The position numbers were made by a program, and so were the translations under genes. The notes under the pieces were generated by a model that saw nothing but the letters and a program-made list of their open reading frames with translations, ran no database searches and was not told where the DNA came from. DNA of 64,000 bases from positions 62,001 to 126,000 of the forward strand of contig NZ_JALJCL010000012.1 in the NCBI RefSeq assembly GCF_023698535.1. Reading direction: 5' to 3'. Of the stretch, positions 5,848 through 46,664 are shown piece by piece; the first letter of the stretch is position 1; the number at the start of each line of letters is the position of its first letter. This DNA comes from Halorientalis regularis (GTDB taxonomy: Archaea > Halobacteriota > Halobacteria > Halobacteriales > Haloarculaceae).

Positions 5848-7374
5848 TCACTCACTCTGTGTGAGGCCGGACCAGCCGACCATGTTGTCGACTGGGTGCC
5901 AGTCGATCCCGGTGATATCAGCCTGTCGGCCGAAGACGTACTCGTTGTAGTACAGGGGAATGACTGCACCGGTCTCGACGACCCGTTGTTGTACCTCTCC
6001 GTAGTAGTCGCGCTTTTCGGCCATCGTCTCGGCCCGGTACCCCTGCTCGATCAACCGGTCGACTTCGCCGCCAGGATTGTAGACGCCAGTTCCGTTTTGC
6101 TCGTAGAGTTTCCGATTGTCACTCCCTTCGGAGTGGAACATCGCCCGGATGAGGTAATCACTGGCCGCACTGTTCGAGCCGAACCCGACGAGTGTTAGGT
6201 TCGCCTCGCCAGACGTGAACGTGTCGTAGAACGACGCCGGACCGACCTGTCGGATCTCGCTCGCGACGTTGATTTCATCGAACCAACCTGAGAGGATCTG
6301 TGCGATAGTCCTGTCGTCGGTATTTTGACTGTTGATCAGGATGGAGAGTGTTTCGCCGCTATAGCTGGACTGTGCGACCAGTTCCCGGGCCCGTTGTCTG
6401 TCGGGTCCGTACGTCGGAAGGTCGTCGTGAGCTGCCCAGGGAATGACCGAAGAAATCGGACCGGTGGCTGGCTGGCCAATTCCGTTCAGGACGCTCTCGA
6501 CGATCTGGCGCTGATCGACGGCCCAGTTGAGCGCCTGTCGAAGTCGCTCTTCGTCGGTCGGTGACGAGTAGAGGTTAACCGCGACCAGTCCTGCTTCAGG
6601 CGTGAGTTGGGTTTCGATCGCCGTTCCGGGGGCCTCACGCAGGGAGGTGGCACGGCTCTTCGGGATTTTCTGTGTGACGTCGGCCGACCCTTTCTTGAGG
6701 GACAGTGCTCGTGTATTCGGGTCTTGGATCCACTCGAACGTGAGTTCGCTCGGCTTTGCCGTCTCATTCCTGTAGCCCTCGTACGGCGTGAGTGTGATCG
6801 ACTGTTCTTCTTCGACATTTTCGACCCGGAAGGGACCAGTACCGGCCGGTGGGTCGGTCGCATCCGGGTGCTGGATGCCAAAGTAATTATGCGAGATTGT
6901 ACCCGGAAAGGCAGGAAACGGCTCCGTCGTCTGGAACCGGACAGTGGTTTCATCCACTGCGGAAACGCCATTAGGCTCGACGCCGATCCATCCAGGAACC
7001 CACGACAACTGTTTGAAGACCCTGTCGAACGAGTGGACAACAGCGTCGGCTGTCAGCGGTTTGCCGTTGTGGAAGGTGACGTCCTCCCGAAGCGAGAAGT
7101 CCCACGTCGTCTCGTCGACGGCTTTCCAGTCGGTGGCCAGTAACGGTGCCGTCTCCATCTCATCGGTGGTCTCCACGAGTGGTTCGAAGACGTGGGTGTA
7201 ATACGGAGAAACACCGTGGAACATATCCCACTTCTCCTGTGTAGGGTCCCGGGCGAGCGCCACTGTATACGACCTATCCGAATTGGCTTCCGAACCACTA
7301 CAGCCCGCAACAAGTCCGGCAGCCCCAGCCGCGGCACTGCCGAGCAGTTGTCGTCTGGAACAGGCTCTACGCAT
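5848..7374 (-). CDS. Family 5 extracellular solute-binding lipoprotein, first gene of the transporter operon
   Basis: Lipid-anchored peptide/opine-class binding protein, 508 residues. The N-terminus CSRRQLLGSAAAGAAGLVAGC has a Tat motif (SRRQLL) and a lipobox with Cys25, so export by Tat and anchoring outside the membrane is expected. Family phrases: LLATDWKAVDETTWDFSLREDVTFHNGKPLTADAV and LRQALNWAVDQRQIVESVLNGIGQPATGPI. It leads the seven-gene minus-strand operon down to position 1; an A+T-rich promoter with an inverted repeat lies upstream (7509-7540). About 130 bases of leader would separate that promoter from the ATG at 7374. Confidence 0.9.
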   Translation of the reverse strand: MRRACSRRQLLGSAAAGAAGLVAGCSGSEANSDRSYTVALARDPTQEKWDMFHGVSPYYTHVFEPLVETTDEMETAPLLATDWKAVDETTWDFSLREDVTFHNGKPLTADAVVHSFDRVFKQLSWVPGWIGVEPNGVSAVDETTVRFQTTEPFPAFPGTISHNYFGIQHPDATDPPAGTGPFRVENVEEEQSITLTPYEGYRNETAKPSELTFEWIQDPNTRALSLKKGSADVTQKIPKSRATSLREAPGTAIETQLTPEAGLVAVNLYSSPTDEERLRQALNWAVDQRQIVESVLNGIGQPATGPISSVIPWAAHDDLPTYGPDRQRARELVAQSSYSGETLSILINSQNTDDRTIAQILSGWFDEINVASEIRQVGPASFYDTFTSGEANLTLVGFGSNSAASDYLIRAMFHSEGSDNRKLYEQNGTGVYNPGGEVDRLIEQGYRAETMAEKRDYYGEVQQRVVETGAVIPLYYNEYVFGRQADITGIDWHPVDNMVGWSGLTQSE

Positions 7375-40065: not shown

Positions 40066-40077
40066 CTAGAGAACTAG
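40066..40077 (+). promoter_or_regulatory. CTAG-N4-CTAG element upstream of the beta-helix lipoprotein
   Basis: CTAGAGAACTAG, 39 bases before ATG 40117. Same pattern and nearly the same distance as at 42095 and 46653. Confidence 0.5.
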
Positions 40078-40116
40078 GTCGCCAATACAACCGCCACGGC
40101 TGTGAACGCGGTGGTG

Positions 40117-42018
40117 ATGACACGGGAGAACGGCGGCGACGGCGGGATGGGATCGACGGGCGGAACGCGACGGAAGTACCTCGCGATGGTCGGCGCGGGG
40201 ACCGCGAGCGTCTTCGCCGGCTGTGGCGGGGGCGACGGTACCACCACGGCTCCCGGCGGTACCGAAACGCCTGGCGGGTCGGCGCTGTCGGCGGTCCCGT
40301 CGGGTCCCTGCCAGCAGCCACCCACTGACAGCACCACCACGTACGAGGGACCGTCCCGGATCAGTCAGGACACGACGCTCGGGTCCGACGCCGACGTGGT
40401 CGAACTCGACTACGGTCTCAGCGTCGATCCTGACGCCACGCTCACCGTCGAGTCGGGGACCACGCTCTCGTTCGCCCAGGGAACGTCTGTGTCGGTGGCG
40501 GGGACGCTCACGGCCGCTGGCAGCTGTTCGGCGCCGATATTCTTCACCGGCCGGTCGGACACGAGAGGGATCTGGGGCGGCATCACGTTCACCGGCGAGG
40601 CCAGCGGGACCCTCGACCACGTCCTCGTCGAAAACGCCGGCTCGGAGGACGGCGCCGGCGTCGAGATACGGAGCACCGGCCCAGTCGCCGTCACCAACTC
40701 GGAGATCCGGGGAAGCCGGAACTTCGGGATCTCGGTCGACTCGGTCGCCCGCCTCGAGTCGTTCAGCGGCAACGGAATCACGGGCAACGCCGAGCCAGTC
40801 GAAGTCACGGCGAGCAACGTCGACGCCATCGCCGGCGACAACGCGCTGACCGGCAACGACACCGATCGACTGTTCGTGTGGGCCTCGATCGACTACGTGG
40901 TCCCGGAGGGGGAGCAACACACGTGGGCGAATCCGGGCGTCCCGCTGTACCTGAACCAGAACCGACTCACCTTCGAAGTCCGGGGCGACCTGACGCTCGA
41001 ACCGGGGATCGAACTGCGGGTGGCGGAGGGCAACGGCATCTTCGTCACCGGGTCGTTGAACGCGGCGATCCCCGGGGACGACCTCCCCGGAGAGGGAGCC
41101 GTCGAGAGCCCGCCCGAGAACGCCATCACGATCCGCGGCGCCCAGGCCACGCCCGGCTTCTGGGAGGGGCTGATGTACGCGGAGACGGCGGACGCGAACA
41201 ACGTCCTCCGAGGCGTCGTCGTGCGCCACGGCGGCGGCGAGCTCGGCGGTCGCGGCATCTACCAGGAGCCGGCGGGCGTGAGCGTGCTGACCGGCTCGCG
41301 CCTCACCCTCGACGGAGCGGTGATCGAGGACAACGACGGGTACGGGCTGTTCGTCAATAAGGAGAACGAACTCCAGACCGTCGACCGAACGCGCATCAGG
41401 AACAACGTCGAGCCGGCGATGCTGTACGTCACGACCGTTCCCGCGCTGGGGACGTCGACAGATTACTCCGGCAACGAGACGGACCGAATCGAGGTCGTCA
41501 ACCCGACGAACGCGATCGAGACCTCGATGACGGTGCCCGCCGTCGACGTCCCCTACCGGTTCTCGCTGAGCCAGGTGGGGACACTTGTTCGGATCGCAGC
41601 CGACGTCGTGATCGCCGACGGGACGGAGATCCAGTTCGGACAGGACGCCGGCATCGACGTGGATCACGGCGGTTCGCTGACGATCAAGGGCAGCGAGACC
41701 GACGACGGCGGCCGGTCGACGGTGCTACGTGGCGAGGAGGCGACCCCGGGCTTCTGGAAGGGGATTCGCTACTTCGACACCCGAAGCCAGGACAACGTCA
41801 TCGACGGCGCGGAGATCCGTCACACCGGATCGTCGAACTGGGCGAACATCGAGCCGCCGTCGAAGGCGGCCGTGGCGGCCGCGGTCGCGGCGGAGGCGAC
41901 GGTCCAGAACTGCCTGATCGCCGAGTTCGAGGGCGCCGCGTTCCAGGCCTCCGGTGATCGGGCGCCAGCGGGCGATCAGACCTCGACGATCACGACGTCG
42001 AACAACGTGGTCCGATGA
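40117..42018 (+). CDS. Tat lipoprotein with right-handed parallel beta-helix repeats
   Basis: 633 residues from ATG 40117; GTG 40102 would add five. Tat/lipobox signal TRRKYLAMVGAGTASVFAGC. A Thr/Gly/Pro linker follows, then repeated beta-helix rungs such as LTVESGTTLSFAQGTSVSVAG, LEPGIELRVAEGNGIFVTG and IADGTEIQFGQDAGIDVDHG, together with ATPGFWEGLMY and ATPGFWKGIRY. These give a surface-anchored, pectate-lyase-like fold; no catalytic residues identified. Its promoter carries the CTAG-N4-CTAG element, as do the other two lipoproteins near the Bat-like regulator. Confidence 0.75.
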   Translation: MTRENGGDGGMGSTGGTRRKYLAMVGAGTASVFAGCGGGDGTTTAPGGTETPGGSALSAVPSGPCQQPPTDSTTTYEGPSRISQDTTLGSDADVVELDYGLSVDPDATLTVESGTTLSFAQGTSVSVAGTLTAAGSCSAPIFFTGRSDTRGIWGGITFTGEASGTLDHVLVENAGSEDGAGVEIRSTGPVAVTNSEIRGSRNFGISVDSVARLESFSGNGITGNAEPVEVTASNVDAIAGDNALTGNDTDRLFVWASIDYVVPEGEQHTWANPGVPLYLNQNRLTFEVRGDLTLEPGIELRVAEGNGIFVTGSLNAAIPGDDLPGEGAVESPPENAITIRGAQATPGFWEGLMYAETADANNVLRGVVVRHGGGELGGRGIYQEPAGVSVLTGSRLTLDGAVIEDNDGYGLFVNKENELQTVDRTRIRNNVEPAMLYVTTVPALGTSTDYSGNETDRIEVVNPTNAIETSMTVPAVDVPYRFSLSQVGTLVRIAADVVIADGTEIQFGQDAGIDVDHGGSLTIKGSETDDGGRSTVLRGEEATPGFWKGIRYFDTRSQDNVIDGAEIRHTGSSNWANIEPPSKAAVAAAVAAEATVQNCLIAEFEGAAFQASGDRAPAGDQTSTITTSNNVVR

Positions 42019-42094
42019 CGGCCGTCGCGACGGAAGCCCAACGCCCCGCACGGGACCGCAGCGACTGCGCTCCCGGTCCCGTAACACCGGTATC

Positions 42095-42106
42095 CTAGCC
42101 AGCTAG
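42095..42106 (+). promoter_or_regulatory. CTAG-N4-CTAG element upstream of the lipoprotein at 42145
   Basis: CTAGCCAGCTAG, 38 bases before the ATG, within ACCGG...CCGGG flanks that are also present before the paralogous gene at 46614. Confidence 0.55.
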
Positions 42107-42144
42107 ATCCGGGATAGGAGTCCACGACGGCCGTTGCCCGACGT

Positions 42145-42831
42145 ATGTCCGACGACTCGGACGGACGGCAGGCATCACGAACGGAATCGTACCGGCGACG
42201 CGACGTCCTGGGTGCGCTGGGGGCTGCGGGTGCCCTCGCGCTCGCAGGATGCGCCTCCGATGGTGGCAGCGACGACGATGGCGACGGCGGCGGTGAGGAC
42301 CCAGACGACGGCGACGATGGCGGCGATCCCGACTCGACCGCGACGTCGGGTAACGCCGACGGCGGGCGATCCGGCGGCGACGGCGGACAGCGAGTGGCCT
42401 GTGGCTCGCCGTCGTTCGCGTACCGGACCGAGACCTTCCAGCCCTCGACCGGTGACGCGACGTTGCAGACGTCGGTTCCCGAACGTGCGTCGGTGCGGAA
42501 AACGACAGGCCTAACGGCACAGATCTACTACCAGAACTATCAGACCGACGCGCTCAGCCTGTACGCGACGTACATGCCGGCGGGCACCGCCGACGACGCC
42601 GCCGCTGGCATGGCTGGTGCGGAGGACGTCACCGACGAGTACGACCCCACGGTGGCGGGCACGCGGGTCGTGCGGACCGCCTCGGATGACGGTCGTCGCG
42701 TGCTCAGGGCGTTGCAACCGGCCGACGACGGCTACTTCGATGTTCGCGTGACGATCGGCGAGCGAGCGTGTCCGGAAGCGACCGCGGTCGCCGCCACCGA
42801 GATGATCGACACTCTCCGGCCGACCGGCTGA
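42145..42831 (+). CDS. Haloarchaeal lipoprotein, paralogue of the one at 46018
   Basis: 228 residues. Tat motif YRRRDVLGALG and lipobox LAGC near 36, followed by a long Asp/Gly linker (about 38-85), typical of halophile surface lipoproteins. The globular part begins CGSPSFAYRTETFQP and ends with CPEATAVAATEMIDTL; it keeps two Cys that could form a disulfide. The N-terminal 40 residues are nearly the same as in the lipoprotein at 46018-46614 and the globular parts share the C-x-S-P-x-F-x-Y start. No known function. Confidence 0.75.
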   Translation: MSDDSDGRQASRTESYRRRDVLGALGAAGALALAGCASDGGSDDDGDGGGEDPDDGDDGGDPDSTATSGNADGGRSGGDGGQRVACGSPSFAYRTETFQPSTGDATLQTSVPERASVRKTTGLTAQIYYQNYQTDALSLYATYMPAGTADDAAAGMAGAEDVTDEYDPTVAGTRVVRTASDDGRRVLRALQPADDGYFDVRVTIGERACPEATAVAATEMIDTLRPTG

Positions 42832-42972
42832 GTCGCCCTCCGAACGGGCTGGGTGCGTTCGTTCTCACGATATCTAGGACACCACCGTTCGGAGACGCTC
42901 TGAGAGAGATCGTTTTCTTTATCGACACTAACGCCCGCCCGCGTCCGTTCTCACAATCCCGCATCCGGGCAC

Positions 42973-43686
42973 TGCCAGGGGGCATTGTTCAGATTAGCTG
43001 GGTCCATGCGAACGCGAAGGTTTGCAGCCAATTTTCGGCCGACTCAGGAGTTGCGTTGCGGAAATGATTAGCAAACTGTTCGGTTCGTCGTTTTACCCCA
43101 TTGAAGACACGTTCGACGGCATTCCGATTTCCATGAGTGACGTGCTGAAATCGGAGGCTTTCTTCAAAGAGCGCGGCCTGTAACCATGGTGCGCCATCGA
43201 CGAGAAACACGGCGTCGGCCACGTCATGTTTCTCTTGGAGTTCCTGCAGGAACTGTTTTGTCAGGACGATGGTTCGCGTCGGAAACAGCCGCACATGGAG
43301 AAATTCGTTCGTGTCGGGATCGACCGCGGCGTACAGCCAAAATCGTTGATCGTTGAGTTGAATCACTGTCTCGTCGACCGCAACGTGATTCGGGCTCTTT
43401 CCGCCTTCGGGCTGTAGATCGGCTTTCTGCCCCCAGTTGTGGACGGTGGAACGAGCGCGTTGGACACCGAAGCTATCGAGAACACAAACAGTGTCTGAAA
43501 GCGATAGTTCAGCCGCGTGCAGGTGGATACTGAGCCGCATCAGCGGCTCCGGTGTCGCCTCGCGCTCCACAAAATCTAATTCGATGCAGTCGCTAGAACC
43601 GCCGAGGCGGTCGATTTCTGGCATAGGCACCACAAATTTCGACCGCCTCGTCCTTCAGACCTTATCTGAACAGTGCCCTGCCAGGG
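42973..43686. mobile_element. Complete IS6-family element with target duplication
   Basis: Inverted repeats GGGCATTGTTCAGATTA (42980-42996) and complement of GGGCACTGTTCAGATAA (43662-43678). Flanked by the direct repeat TGCCAGGG at 42973-42980 and 43679-43686, the 8-base target duplication of IS6. The copy is therefore recent and intact; it sits between the lipoprotein gene and the Bat-like gene. Confidence 0.85.
42989..43624 (-). CDS. IS6-family transposase, intact
   Basis: 211 residues from ATG 43624 (an earlier Met at 43633 is possible). DDE residues in HVAVDETVIQL (D), VFLVDGAPWLQ (D) and NAVERVFNGVKRRT (E). The N-terminus has the short helix-turn-helix REATPEPLMRLSIHLHAAELSLSDTV. It fills the element almost completely. 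The same subfamily occurs as two decayed copies at 62803-63761. Confidence 0.92.
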   Translation of the reverse strand: MPEIDRLGGSSDCIELDFVEREATPEPLMRLSIHLHAAELSLSDTVCVLDSFGVQRARSTVHNWGQKADLQPEGGKSPNHVAVDETVIQLNDQRFWLYAAVDPDTNEFLHVRLFPTRTIVLTKQFLQELQEKHDVADAVFLVDGAPWLQAALFEESLRFQHVTHGNRNAVERVFNGVKRRTEQFANHFRNATPESAENWLQTFAFAWTQLI

Positions 43687-43776
43687 AGCCGAATAGTTTT
43701 TCCGTCCGGACTGTTCACTGACCTGATATCGATCGGTCGGATCCGACGGGGGTCCGGCACGTCGTCTGTGTAACAC

Positions 43777-45990
43777 ATGGTACCGAGCTTTCGAATCGTC
43801 TTCACCGCGGCCCTCCTTCTCTCGGGGGCCTCGACGCTGGTGCTGGCCGTGTTCTCATACCGGCAACGGGAGAAGCCGGGGGCACTGCCCTTCGCCGGTC
43901 TGGCCGCGTCGCTGGCCCTCTGGGCGTTCGTCTACGCCGTGGGAATCCAAATTCGGAACCCGACGGCACGGATCGCCATCCTCCAGATCCAGTGGCTCGC
44001 TCATCCGTCGGTCCCGCTGTTTCTGTTCCTGTTCGGCCTCAGCTACACGGGCCACGACGAGGTCATCACGCGTCGGACCCTGCCGCTCATCGCCGCAATT
44101 CCGATACTCGTGGTGGTGGGCGCCTGGACGAACCCCTGGCACCACCTCCTCTGGACCGACCAGGTGATCCATGTCGTCGACGGGGTGTCGGTCCTCGTTC
44201 CCACGTACGGCCCGCTGTTCTGGATCAACATCGTCTACGGCTACGGCATTGAGGCCGTCGCCATCGCGATGCTGATCCGCCTCGTCTACGAGTCCGACTA
44301 CCTCTACGCCGATCAGTCGGCGCTCCTGTTGCTCGGGATCGCCATCCCGTTCGTCGCGAACGTCCACGAGATATTCATCGTCGGAGCGACTCCGGCCGTC
44401 GACTGGACGCCGATCGCCTTCGCCGCCAGCGGAGTGGCCTTCGGCGCCGCCGTGTTCCGGCACCAGCTGTTCGACCTGATCCCGGCGACCCGGACGCTCG
44501 GCCGCGACGACGCCATCACGCAACTGGAGAGCGGTATCGTGATCATCGACAGCGACGACCGCGTGGTGTACGCCAACGGCGAGGCCGGCGACATCTTCGA
44601 GCGCGACCCTCGTGACATGCTCGGCCGGCAGGTCCAATCGTTCGTTGACGAAGAGTGGGTCGACTTCGACGCGGTCGACGCCCTCGCTGAGGCAGAACGC
44701 GGGGGCCGGACCTACGAGATCCGGACGTCACCGATCACCGACCGCTCGGGCCGGGAGATCGGTCACACCCTCGTCCTCTACGACGTCACTGCCCGGAAGC
44801 GCCGCGAGCGCGAACTCGCCACGGTCAATGAACTCAACGCGCTGATCCGCGGGGTCAACCAGGCGCTGGTCTCGGCGACCAGTCGCGAGGACATCGAGTG
44901 TGCGGTCGCGGCGCACCTCGCCGACGCGGACCTCTACGAGGGCGTCCGCGTCGCCGACGTCCAGACGTGGATGGGGGAGGCCGACCGCTGGCGCGTCTCG
45001 GGCACAGGCGTCGACGACGATTCGGCCGCGACCGTCAGCGGGGGACACGGCGCGATACCACCCGAACTCGATATCGATCGCATCCGTGCCGAGCGGGACG
45101 GGACCGCGGACGGCGACGCGCCGGTGACGGCCGCGATCCCCGGTGACGCGACGGCGAGCAACTGGCTGATCGTCCCGATGGTCTACGGACGGACGGTCTA
45201 CGGGGCGATCGGACTGGTAACCGACCGGACGGACGTCAGCGATCGCGAGCGGGAAGTGCTCGGTGAACTCGGCGAGCTCGTCGGCCATGCCATCAACACC
45301 ACGGAGTCGCGGCGGCTATTCGCGACGGACGGCGTGATCGAGATGACCGTCGCCGTCGAGGACGACGCCGACCCCGTCGTCGCGGTGACCGTGGGCTGTG
45401 ACGCCCGGATCGACGTCGTCGGCATCGTCCCGAAGAACGGCGAGGGCAACCACGCTTTCCTGGAGGTGACGGGGGGCGACATCGAGGCGATCCGGGATCG
45501 CCTGGCCGCTGCGGACGTCGACGTGCGGATCGTCGAAGGGGACGGTGAGAGCGGTTTCATCGATGTCGCACTCGACCAGGCCACGTCCCTGGCTCCCATC
45601 GCCGAGCGCGACACCCAGCTCCTCCGCGGGACGGTCGCCAACGGGACGGCGACGTACGAACTGCTCGTTCCCACCGCCGCAGAGGGTCGGACGTTGATCG
45701 ACCGGCTATCCGCGGTTTTCGACGGGACGGACCTCCGCGCCAAGCGAGAACGCGACCATCCGTTCGACACGATGGACGGGATGACACCGGAGGACCTCGA
45801 GAGCCTCACTGACCGCCAGCGCGAGGCGCTGGAGGTCGCCTATCGCGCCGGCTACTTCGAGTGGCCCCGGGACGCGAACGCCGAAGAGGTCGCCGAATCG
45901 ATGGACATCACGTCGCCGACCCTGCACAGCCACCTGCGCAAAGCCCAGCGGACGCTTTTCGAGGACCTCTTTGATCGCGATCCAGAGTGA
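43777..45990 (+). CDS. Bat-like regulator: 7TM-PAS-GAF-bacterio-opsin activator-HTH_10
   Basis: 737 residues. Seven membrane helices (about 5-225) of the histidine-kinase N-terminal type (IQWLAHPSVPLFLFLFGLSYTG), then a PAS domain (about 245-355: IIDSDDRVVYANGEAGDIF), a GAF-like domain (about 365-515), a bacterio-opsin activator domain (about 525-675) and the HTH_10 domain (LTDRQREALEVAYRAGYFEWPRDANAEEVAESMDITSPTLHSHL, about 690-733). There is no kinase domain: sensing and DNA binding are in one membrane protein. Flanked by two lipoprotein genes that share a promoter element, it is the likely regulator of them. Confidence 0.85.
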   Translation: MVPSFRIVFTAALLLSGASTLVLAVFSYRQREKPGALPFAGLAASLALWAFVYAVGIQIRNPTARIAILQIQWLAHPSVPLFLFLFGLSYTGHDEVITRRTLPLIAAIPILVVVGAWTNPWHHLLWTDQVIHVVDGVSVLVPTYGPLFWINIVYGYGIEAVAIAMLIRLVYESDYLYADQSALLLLGIAIPFVANVHEIFIVGATPAVDWTPIAFAASGVAFGAAVFRHQLFDLIPATRTLGRDDAITQLESGIVIIDSDDRVVYANGEAGDIFERDPRDMLGRQVQSFVDEEWVDFDAVDALAEAERGGRTYEIRTSPITDRSGREIGHTLVLYDVTARKRRERELATVNELNALIRGVNQALVSATSREDIECAVAAHLADADLYEGVRVADVQTWMGEADRWRVSGTGVDDDSAATVSGGHGAIPPELDIDRIRAERDGTADGDAPVTAAIPGDATASNWLIVPMVYGRTVYGAIGLVTDRTDVSDREREVLGELGELVGHAINTTESRRLFATDGVIEMTVAVEDDADPVVAVTVGCDARIDVVGIVPKNGEGNHAFLEVTGGDIEAIRDRLAAADVDVRIVEGDGESGFIDVALDQATSLAPIAERDTQLLRGTVANGTATYELLVPTAAEGRTLIDRLSAVFDGTDLRAKRERDHPFDTMDGMTPEDLESLTDRQREALEVAYRAGYFEWPRDANAEEVAESMDITSPTLHSHLRKAQRTLFEDLFDRDPE

Positions 45991-46017
45991 TAGGCGCGCC
46001 GGGACCGTCCCGGCTCG

Positions 46018-46614
46018 TCAGGCGAGCTGTGCCGACGTTATCGCGCGTTCCTGCACAGCCGTCACCGGATCAACGCAGGCGACGTTGCCGCGGAAGGTCG
46101 CCTCCACGGCGACGAGTCTGGTTTCGGTGGGAAAGAGGATGCTGAGCGTTTGTGGTACGCCGAACCGTTCGTCGTCGGCCGCGACCGCGGCCGCGTCTGA
46201 GGGAACGTCGTACCGGTCGGTGACCTCGCGGAGTCGCCAAGTCTCCAAGTGCTCGTCGACCGTCGACTCGCCGTAGTTCAACGCGCCGACGGTGACGGCG
46301 ACATCACCCAGGCTGACCTCTCGACCGGGGCCGGTTTGCACCGCGTGTGCACGAGACCTCGGGATCTCGGCGGACGCCAGCACCTGATCGTTGTGGGAGA
46401 GTTCCGTGCGCTCGTACGAGAACGGTGGCGACGGACAGTTCCCGGTCGGAGTACCGGAACTGTCCCCCGCGGAGCCGGGAGAGTTTCCCGGCCCGTCGCT
46501 GGAGCAGCCCGCGAGTGTTAGGACGCCCGCAGTCCCGACCGCGCCGAGCACGTCACGTCGTCGGTACGAATCGCCGGTTCGCGTCTGCTGTCCGTCCGGA
46601 GTGTCGTCGGACAT
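46018..46614 (-). CDS. Haloarchaeal lipoprotein, paralogue of the one at 42145
   Basis: 198 residues. Tat motif YRRRDVLGAVG and lipobox LAGC near residue 36, then a Gly/Ser/Pro linker. The globular part starts CPSPPFSYERTELSH and contains VTVGALNYGESTVDEH; a late Cys (VACVDP) could pair with the first. Signal region nearly identical to that of the lipoprotein at 42145, and both have the CTAG-N4-CTAG element 38 bases upstream. Convergent with the Bat-like gene, stops 27 bases apart. Function unknown. Confidence 0.75.
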   Translation of the reverse strand: MSDDTPDGQQTRTGDSYRRRDVLGAVGTAGVLTLAGCSSDGPGNSPGSAGDSSGTPTGNCPSPPFSYERTELSHNDQVLASAEIPRSRAHAVQTGPGREVSLGDVAVTVGALNYGESTVDEHLETWRLREVTDRYDVPSDAAAVAADDERFGVPQTLSILFPTETRLVAVEATFRGNVACVDPVTAVQERAITSAQLA

Positions 46615-46652
46615 GGATCAGTCCGGGACTCCCACCCACTCTTACCCCGGCA

Positions 46653-46664
46653 CTAGCTGACTAG
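46653..46664 (-). promoter_or_regulatory. CTAG-N4-CTAG element upstream of the lipoprotein at 46614
   Basis: On the minus strand CTAGTCAGCTAG, 38 bases before the ATG, flanked by ACCGG and GCCGGGGTA as before the paralogous gene at 42145. Confidence 0.55.

What the first reader, a model, noticed from the sequence alone, without database searches (positions are those of the whole stretch)
40066..46664. Three lipoprotein genes share CTAG-N4-CTAG at near-constant distance, around a Bat-like sensor-regulator
CTAGAGAACTAG (40066), CTAGCCAGCTAG (42095) and, on the other strand, CTAGTCAGCTAG (46653) lie 38-39 bases before the three lipoprotein start codons. For the two paralogous lipoproteins the flanks ACCGG...CCGGG-TA-GAGT are also shared, for the beta-helix protein they are not, so the core is not just residual paralogy. 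CTAG is a scarce tetranucleotide in haloarchaea. With leaderless mRNAs the element would sit just upstream of BRE/TATA, an activator position. The membrane-bound Bat-like protein at 43777, with HTH_10 and no kinase, lies between two of them. I infer a one-component surface-sensing regulon.
Basis: partly seen in the sequence, partly recalled or inferred. Interest (0 to 1): 0.72.

Follow-up and report, generated by a model that had tools for sequence, protein, structure and literature searches.

The report
Shared switch site before lipoprotein genes
In a salt-loving archaeon, three neighbouring surface-protein genes carry the same short, rare DNA site at the same distance before their starts; relatives keep it beside genes for Bat-type regulators, so it is very probably the docking site of that widespread and little-understood regulator family.

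Summary
CTAG-N4-CTAG occurs at 40066, 42095 and 46653, 39/38/38 bases before three lipoprotein start codons. The 4.03 Mb genome has only seven copies, three of them within 6.6 kb. Comparative tests support a real promoter element. Halosimplex pelagicum has a 79% lp1 orthologue directly upstream of a Bat-like gene, with a perfect copy 39 bases before its start; a second copy faces a divergent lipoprotein. A third genus has the lp1-Bat pair with a one-mismatch copy at gap 39. An lp1 homologue in another family has a perfect copy at gap 38.

The element is not lipoprotein-specific. It also lies between other Bat-type (HTH_10) genes and their downstream genes: in five genomes of this genus, in Halosimplex as a tandem pair, and elsewhere. 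Its four spacer bases vary while both CTAGs stay. One diverged orthologue has CTAA-N4-TTAG, a symmetric double change typical of a dimer's operator.

Best reading: CTAG-N4-CTAG is the upstream site of a clade of HTH_10 regulators, and the membrane-bound 7TM-PAS-BAT-HTH_10 protein at 43777 controls the three lipoproteins. Binding, activation and 'surface sensing' are not shown. It is a new operator variant of the known Bat/NarO kind.

The parts
40066..40077 (+). Element 1, CTAGAGAACTAG, 39 bases before lp1 ATG
   Evidence: kept before lp1 homologues in three other genera
40117..42018 (+). lp1: lipobox-containing (Tat-type signal) right-handed beta-helix lipoprotein, 633 aa
   Evidence: ORF; Pfam Beta_helix and NosD; start codon supported by the Halosimplex orthologue
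42095..42106 (+). Element 2, CTAGCCAGCTAG, 38 bases before lp2 ATG
42145..42831 (+). lp2: small lipoprotein, 228 aa, no family match
42981..43677 (-). IS6-family insertion sequence between lp2 and the Bat-like gene (transposase 42989-43633), flanked by the 8-9 bp repeat CTGCCAGG(G)
   Evidence: NCBIfam transpos_IS6 E 7e-52; ends and target duplication read directly
43777..45990 (+). Bat-like one-component regulator, 737 aa: HisKA_7TM sensor, PAS, weak GAF, BAT, C-terminal HTH_10; no kinase domain
   Evidence: Pfam; orthologues
46018..46614 (-). lp3: small lipoprotein, 198 aa, paralogue of lp2 (mature parts 27% identical)
46653..46664 (-). Element 3, CTAGTCAGCTAG, 38 bases before lp3 ATG

Best explanation
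CTAG-N4-CTAG is an upstream regulatory site lying just above the BRE/TATA region, at about -51 to -39 from the start codon of probably leaderless genes. It is bound by a dimer of an HTH_10 (Bat-type) regulator. In this locus the regulator is most likely the membrane-anchored 7TM-PAS-BAT-HTH_10 protein encoded at 43777: its 7TM and PAS parts would sense a signal and its C-terminal HTH_10 would bind the three sites and change, probably raise, transcription of the three lipoprotein genes. SHOWN: the sites, their scarcity, their fixed position, conservation across genera and in another family, variable spacers with fixed half-sites, and repeated adjacency to HTH_10 genes. INFERRED: binding by HTH_10, dimer binding, activation, and that this paralogue rather than another of the 34 HTH_10 matches in the genome is the regulator. 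UNKNOWN: the signal.
For: (a) 3 of 7 genomic copies lie in this 6.6 kb with gaps 39/38/38. (b) Halosimplex pelagicum R2 (G092): lp1 orthologue 79% followed by a Bat-like orthologue (45%), perfect CTAGAGAGCTAG at gap 39, plus a second perfect copy before the divergent DUF7537 lipoprotein; those 19 kb hold only five CTAGs, four of them in these two elements. (c) G011: lp1 (41%) and Bat-like (51%) pair with CTAC-GTAT-CTAG at gap 39. (d) G366, another family: lp1 homologue (about 40%) with CTAGAGGTCTAG at gap 38 and an HTH_10 gene about 4 kb away. (e) G105: Bat-like orthologue followed by CTAGACCTCTAG at gap 39 from the next ATG. (f) In 22 lp1/Bat homologue loci, CTAG-N4-CTAG with up to one mismatch at promoter gaps gives exactly 3 hits, those in (c)-(e); spacers 2, 3, 5, 6 give 1, 1, 0, 1. 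(g) Another Bat-type gene (PAS/GAF-BAT-HTH_10) followed by a DUF7344 gene has ACCTAG-N4-CTAGG between them in 5 genomes, spacer variable; the sixth pair has CCTAA-GTGA-TTAGG, a symmetric change. (h) Halosimplex: tandem elements between an HTH_10 gene and a 119-aa winged-helix-like gene, pattern found in six genomes, three examined; also beside HTH_10 genes in G005, G017, G034, G055. (i) In the genus 7 of 28 copies lie within 1.5 kb of an HTH_10 domain against 2.7% expected (binomial 7e-6; 0.025 after collapsing orthologues); other-spacer control loci 0 of 20 within 1.5 kb. (j) Published 4-N4-4 inverted repeats: in the H. mediterranei denitrification motif CGAA-N4-TTCG, changing the first base cuts nos promoter activity (PMC10062603), and Bat-like proteins related to the HTH_10-type regulators NarO and DmsR are proposed to act on that gene set (PMC11218638).
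Against: No binding or expression data exist. Most Bat-like orthologues, including the 64% one in G019, have no element within about 8 kb. More distant lp1 homologues (about 30% identity) lack it. Many CTAG-N4-CTAG copies in the genus are not near HTH_10 genes, and a conserved promoter-like site in about 14 genomes of another genus is not either, so another binding protein is possible. The HTH_10 recognition helices of element-linked and unlinked proteins look alike. The lp2/lp3 pair may share the site partly by descent.
Confidence: 0.68

Rival explanations
1. The element is a real upstream site but is read by a different regulator (another HTH_10 paralogue acting in trans, or a non-HTH_10 factor); the neighbouring Bat-like gene is incidental.
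For: 34 HTH_10 matches in this genome; copies occur beside unrelated HTH_10 genes and far from any.
Against: The lp1-Bat pairing with the element recurs in three genera, and copies keep turning up at HTH_10 genes rather than at random.
Confidence: 0.2
2. The element is a DNA-modification or chromosome feature: paired CTAG sites marked by the conserved orphan CTAG methyltransferase, with any effect on transcription through methylation rather than a dedicated regulator.
For: CTAG is the target of a widely conserved orphan methylase of unknown role (PMC6471742), and CTAG is enriched upstream of starts in Haloferax lucertense (PMC11001535).
Against: In the cluster and at HTH_10 genes the spacing is four, and the half-site can change symmetrically to CTAA/TTAG, which is no longer CTAG, at the same place.
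Confidence: 0.05
3. Chance plus shared descent: lp2 and lp3 inherited one site from a common ancestor, lp1 has one by chance.
For: lp2/lp3 promoters and 5' coding regions are alike; some copies in the genome look like background.
Against: lp1 has its own conserved element in three other genomes at gaps 38-39.
Confidence: 0.03
4. The dyad acts as an RNA hairpin or terminator.
For: CTAG-N4-CTAG can pair with itself, and some copies follow the stop codon of an HTH_10 gene.
Against: The stem is short and A+T-rich without a T-run; the gap to the next start codon is nearly constant; in the 38/39-gap promoters it would lie upstream of a leaderless transcript.
Confidence: 0.03

Closest known systems
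Bat and the bop upstream activator sequence (UAS), Halobacterium salinarum
   Same: HTH_10 regulator with PAS/GAF/BAT parts; UAS 5' to bop, with UAS sites also at the co-regulated neighbours brp and crtB1 (PMC1447603). From memory, not checked here: consensus ACCcnactagTTnG at -52 to -39, which has the frame CC..A-N4-TT.G; the G002 variant CCTAA-GTGA-TTAGG would fit it in register.
   Different: Window elements read CTAG-N4-CTAG without ACC/GG flanks; targets are lipoproteins, not rhodopsin/retinal genes; this regulator has a 7TM domain.
NarO / DmsR and the CGAA-N4-TTCG denitrification motif
   Same: Bat-like regulators of anaerobic genes; a 12-bp 4-N4-4 inverted repeat in the promoters, with mutational support in H. 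mediterranei (PMC10062603, PMC11218638).
   Different: Half-site CGAA/TTCG rather than CTAG; motif 66-79 bases from ATG; the H. mediterranei regulator is not identified; NarO and DmsR lack PAS and GAF.
GvpE UAS of gas-vesicle promoters (from memory)
   Same: Two half-sites separated by four bases next to the BRE.
   Different: 8-N4-8 of unrelated sequence; GvpE is not an HTH_10 protein.
CTAG orphan methyltransferase of haloarchaea
   Same: Same tetranucleotide; CTAG is scarce (PMC6471742) and enriched upstream of starts (PMC11001535).
   Different: Single CTAG target with no spacing requirement; no link to HTH_10 proteins is reported in the passages read here.

Membership tests
HTH_10 / Bat-type transcription regulators (protein at 43777) | C-terminal HTH_10 domain (PF04967) | tested here: met
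   75.0 bits against cut-off 23.1
HTH_10 / Bat-type transcription regulators (protein at 43777) | BAT domain between GAF and HTH_10 (PF15915) | tested here: met
   81.1 bits against cut-off 25.8
HTH_10 / Bat-type transcription regulators (protein at 43777) | PAS sensory domain | tested here: met
   PAS_4 46.2 bits against 23.1
HTH_10 / Bat-type transcription regulators (protein at 43777) | GAF domain | tested here: inconclusive
   GAF_2 27.4 bits, just under its cut-off of 28.6
HTH_10 / Bat-type transcription regulators (protein at 43777) | Binds DNA upstream of target promoters and activates them | not testable with these tools
   needs binding and deletion experiments
Bat/bop-type UAS (the elements) | Position just upstream of the TATA box, about -52 to -39 (position from memory) | tested here: inconclusive
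   -51 to -39 from the ATG with weak TATA-like sequence about 8 bases downstream; transcription start sites not mapped
Bat/bop-type UAS (the elements) | ACC...GG flanks of the published consensus (from memory) | tested here: not met
   absent in the three window elements, present in the DUF7344-linked elements
4-N4-4 inverted-repeat operators (denitrification motif type) | 12-bp inverted repeat, 4-bp half-sites, 4-bp spacer | tested here: met
   CTAG-N4-CTAG; symmetric change CTAA-N4-TTAG in G002
4-N4-4 inverted-repeat operators (denitrification motif type) | CGAA/TTCG half-site sequence | tested here: not met
   half-site is CTAG

The most novel reading that the evidence does not exclude
CTAG-N4-CTAG is a general operator of a large part of the HTH_10 regulators (24-55 matches per genome in this genus), and this is one reason why CTAG is scarce, is kept upstream of promoters and has a conserved orphan methyltransferase in haloarchaea: stray CTAGs would mis-recruit these regulators, and m4C methylation of paired CTAGs would tune their binding, an archaeal analogue of Dam-sensitive promoters.
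Probability: 0.12. Interest if true: 0.82.

Novelty: new variant of a known kind. Interest (0 to 1): 0.6.

Why it matters
HTH_10 proteins are very numerous in haloarchaea (24-55 matches per genome in this genus), yet few have a known binding site. A short, rare and position-fixed operator that can be found by pattern search gives testable target genes for membrane-bound one-component regulators of this family. It also ties in with an open question: why CTAG is avoided, methylated, and yet enriched upstream of genes in these organisms.

Tried and rejected
Searching relatives with lp2 gave mostly signal-peptide matches, so lp2/lp3 offered no orthologue test. Two same-genus Bat-like homologues (G003, G004) had no nearby lipoproteins or elements; the informative orthologues came from other genera. 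More distant lp1 homologues (about 30%) have no element. The recognition helix of HTH_10 did not separate element-linked from unlinked proteins. Single CTAGs are only slightly commoner at -54 to -37 in 629 predicted genes (18 in three bins, against roughly 10 by the neighbouring bins), too few and too biased a sample to weigh. The gap-53/54 control (17 hits against 38 for gap 38/39) is not a clean null because six of its hits are themselves tandem elements in Halosimplex. The original bop UAS papers are not in the library, so that consensus stays from memory. No structural relative of lp2/lp3 was found by sequence. A plasmid search for lp1 and for a bop-type promoter gave nothing usable. One search was an empty script; one search failed on wrong coordinates.

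Full report
OBSERVATION. They end 39, 38 and 38 bases before the ATGs at 40117, 42145 and 46614. The window has no other copy; shuffles give 0.28 on average and never 3. The 4,031,955-base genome has 7 copies. Spacers 0-20 other than 4 give 35 pairs in all, 1.75 each, so spacer 4 is over-represented (P = 0.002), and three of seven within 6.6 kb has P about 2.5e-7.

PROTEINS. The regulator at 43777 carries HisKA_7TM (residues 13-236), PAS, BAT and HTH_10, with GAF just under threshold and no kinase domain. lp1 is a beta-helix lipoprotein. lp2 and lp3 match no Pfam or NCBIfam family; their mature parts are 27% identical, while signal peptides and about 40 bases of promoter remain alike. An IS6-family element with a duplicated CTGCCAGG(G) target sits between lp2 and the regulator, so the pre-insertion order was lp1, lp2, regulator, with lp3 facing them from the other side.

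CROSS-GENUS TEST. lp1 was used to find the same locus elsewhere. In G092, identified as Halosimplex pelagicum R2 by its contig NZ_CP058909.1, the lp1 orthologue (79%) is followed by a Bat-like gene (45% to ours) and preceded by CTAGAGAGCTAG at gap 39; another CTAGAGAGCTAG lies 47 bases before a divergent DUF7537 lipoprotein. These 19 kb contain five CTAGs, and four form the two elements. In G011 the lp1 (41%) and Bat-like (51%) genes are again adjacent, and the promoter reads CTAC-GTAT-CTAG at gap 39, with the proximal CTAG at the same distance from the ATG as in our lp1. In G366, another family of the order, the lp1 homologue (about 40%) has CTAGAGGTCTAG at gap 38, with an HTH_10 gene about 4 kb away. 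In G105 the Bat-like orthologue is followed by CTAGACCTCTAG 39 bases before the next ATG. Across 22 lp1/Bat homologue loci, matches with up to one mismatch at promoter-like gaps number three, exactly those in G011, G366 and G105; spacers 2, 3, 5 and 6 give 1, 1, 0 and 1. lp1 homologues near 30% identity have no element. Bat-like orthologues without lp1 mostly lack one, including the closest, in G019 (64%).

WIDER ASSOCIATION WITH HTH_10. The genus-wide pattern search, read against the Bat-like coordinates, showed copies immediately after the stop codon of a different Bat-type gene in five genomes. That gene (PAS/GAF-BAT-HTH_10) is followed by a DUF7344 gene. Aligned, the intergenic site is ACCTAG-NNNN-CTAGG with spacers ACAG, ATGG, ATAG, ACAG, GTGT, 45-47 bases before the DUF7344 start. 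The first TAG is also the stop codon in these genes, so coding may explain part of the left half; the right half is non-coding. The sixth genome with this gene pair (G002, 52% and 58% identical) has CCTAA-GTGA-TTAGG there: both half-sites changed symmetrically, as expected for a dimer's operator and not for a CTAG-specific methylase mark.

Further HTH_10-adjacent copies: tandem elements 42 bases apart in Halosimplex, between an HTH_10 gene and a 119-aa winged-helix-like gene (six genomes give the pattern, three were examined), and single copies beside HTH_10 genes in G005, G017, G034 and G055. Counted in the genus, 7 of 28 copies lie within 1.5 kb of an HTH_10 domain; 34 domains in 4.03 Mb predict 2.7% (binomial 7e-6; 0.025 if orthologous copies are counted once). 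Control loci around pairs with other spacers: 0 of 20 within 1.5 kb.

MECHANISM. With start codons as likely transcription starts (leaderless mRNAs are common in haloarchaea: general knowledge), the element spans about -51 to -39 and weak TATA-like sequence follows about 8 bases downstream. This is where activators such as Bat are thought to act: a UAS lies 5' to bop and is shared by co-regulated neighbours (PMC1447603). A 4-N4-4 inverted repeat, CGAA-N4-TTCG, is needed for full nos and nor promoter activity in Haloferax mediterranei (PMC10062603); its regulator there is not identified, but Bat-like proteins related to NarO and DmsR are the proposed candidates (PMC11218638). CTAG-N4-CTAG has the same geometry with another half-site. 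I therefore infer that HTH_10 dimers bind it and that the 7TM regulator at 43777 controls the three lipoproteins. The direction of control, the signal, and the assignment to this paralogue are not shown.

KNOWN AND NEW. Regulator and architecture are of a known kind; the operator sequence, its link to HTH_10 genes and the lipoprotein regulon were not found in the papers available here. The library lacks many subscription papers, so this is not proof of novelty. Two published facts make the motif more interesting: CTAG is scarce and is the target of a conserved orphan methylase whose role is an open question (PMC6471742), and CTAG is several-fold enriched upstream of starts, including -35 to -45 and -50 to -60, in Haloferax lucertense (PMC11001535). 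Paired CTAGs starting at -51 and -43 would fit that pattern; this link is a hypothesis.

LIMITS. Loci were partly chosen because they carry the pattern, orthologous copies are not independent, start codons are predicted, and many CTAG-N4-CTAG copies have no HTH_10 neighbour.

Noticed in passing
L235-L239 (e.g. L238 about 6600-6670); about 14 genomes of genus g3, a Haloarcula-like genus: A conserved promoter-like block CTAG-N4-CTAGGC, TATA-like sequence, then ATGCCTGGGCGTGCCTCTGACAGCAG lies between two convergent radical-SAM-type genes that look like cofG and cofH. The downstream frame closes early and nothing in Rfam matches: possibly an unannotated small RNA or tiny gene.
   Followed up: partly
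G000:C15:31225 (L004 1501) and G015, G024, G041, G080 hits: CTAG-N4-CTAG-like sequence followed by CACACACACCCCTCTATCGATGTGTTCGAT recurs in several genomes, in our genome upstream of what looks like an orc1/cdc6 gene: perhaps an origin-linked repeat.
   Followed up: no
L232 about 6089-6142, L233 6260-6313, L234 6738-6791: Halosimplex species carry two CTAG-N4-CTAG elements 42 bases apart between an HTH_10 gene and a 119-aa winged-helix-like gene.
   Followed up: partly
window 42981-43677: IS6-family insertion with 8-9 bp target duplication between lp2 and the Bat-like gene; the CTAG elements are untouched.
   Followed up: yes
L118 7170-9481 (G011): The lp1 homologue reads in two overlapping frames, so it is either broken or contains an assembly error.
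   Followed up: no
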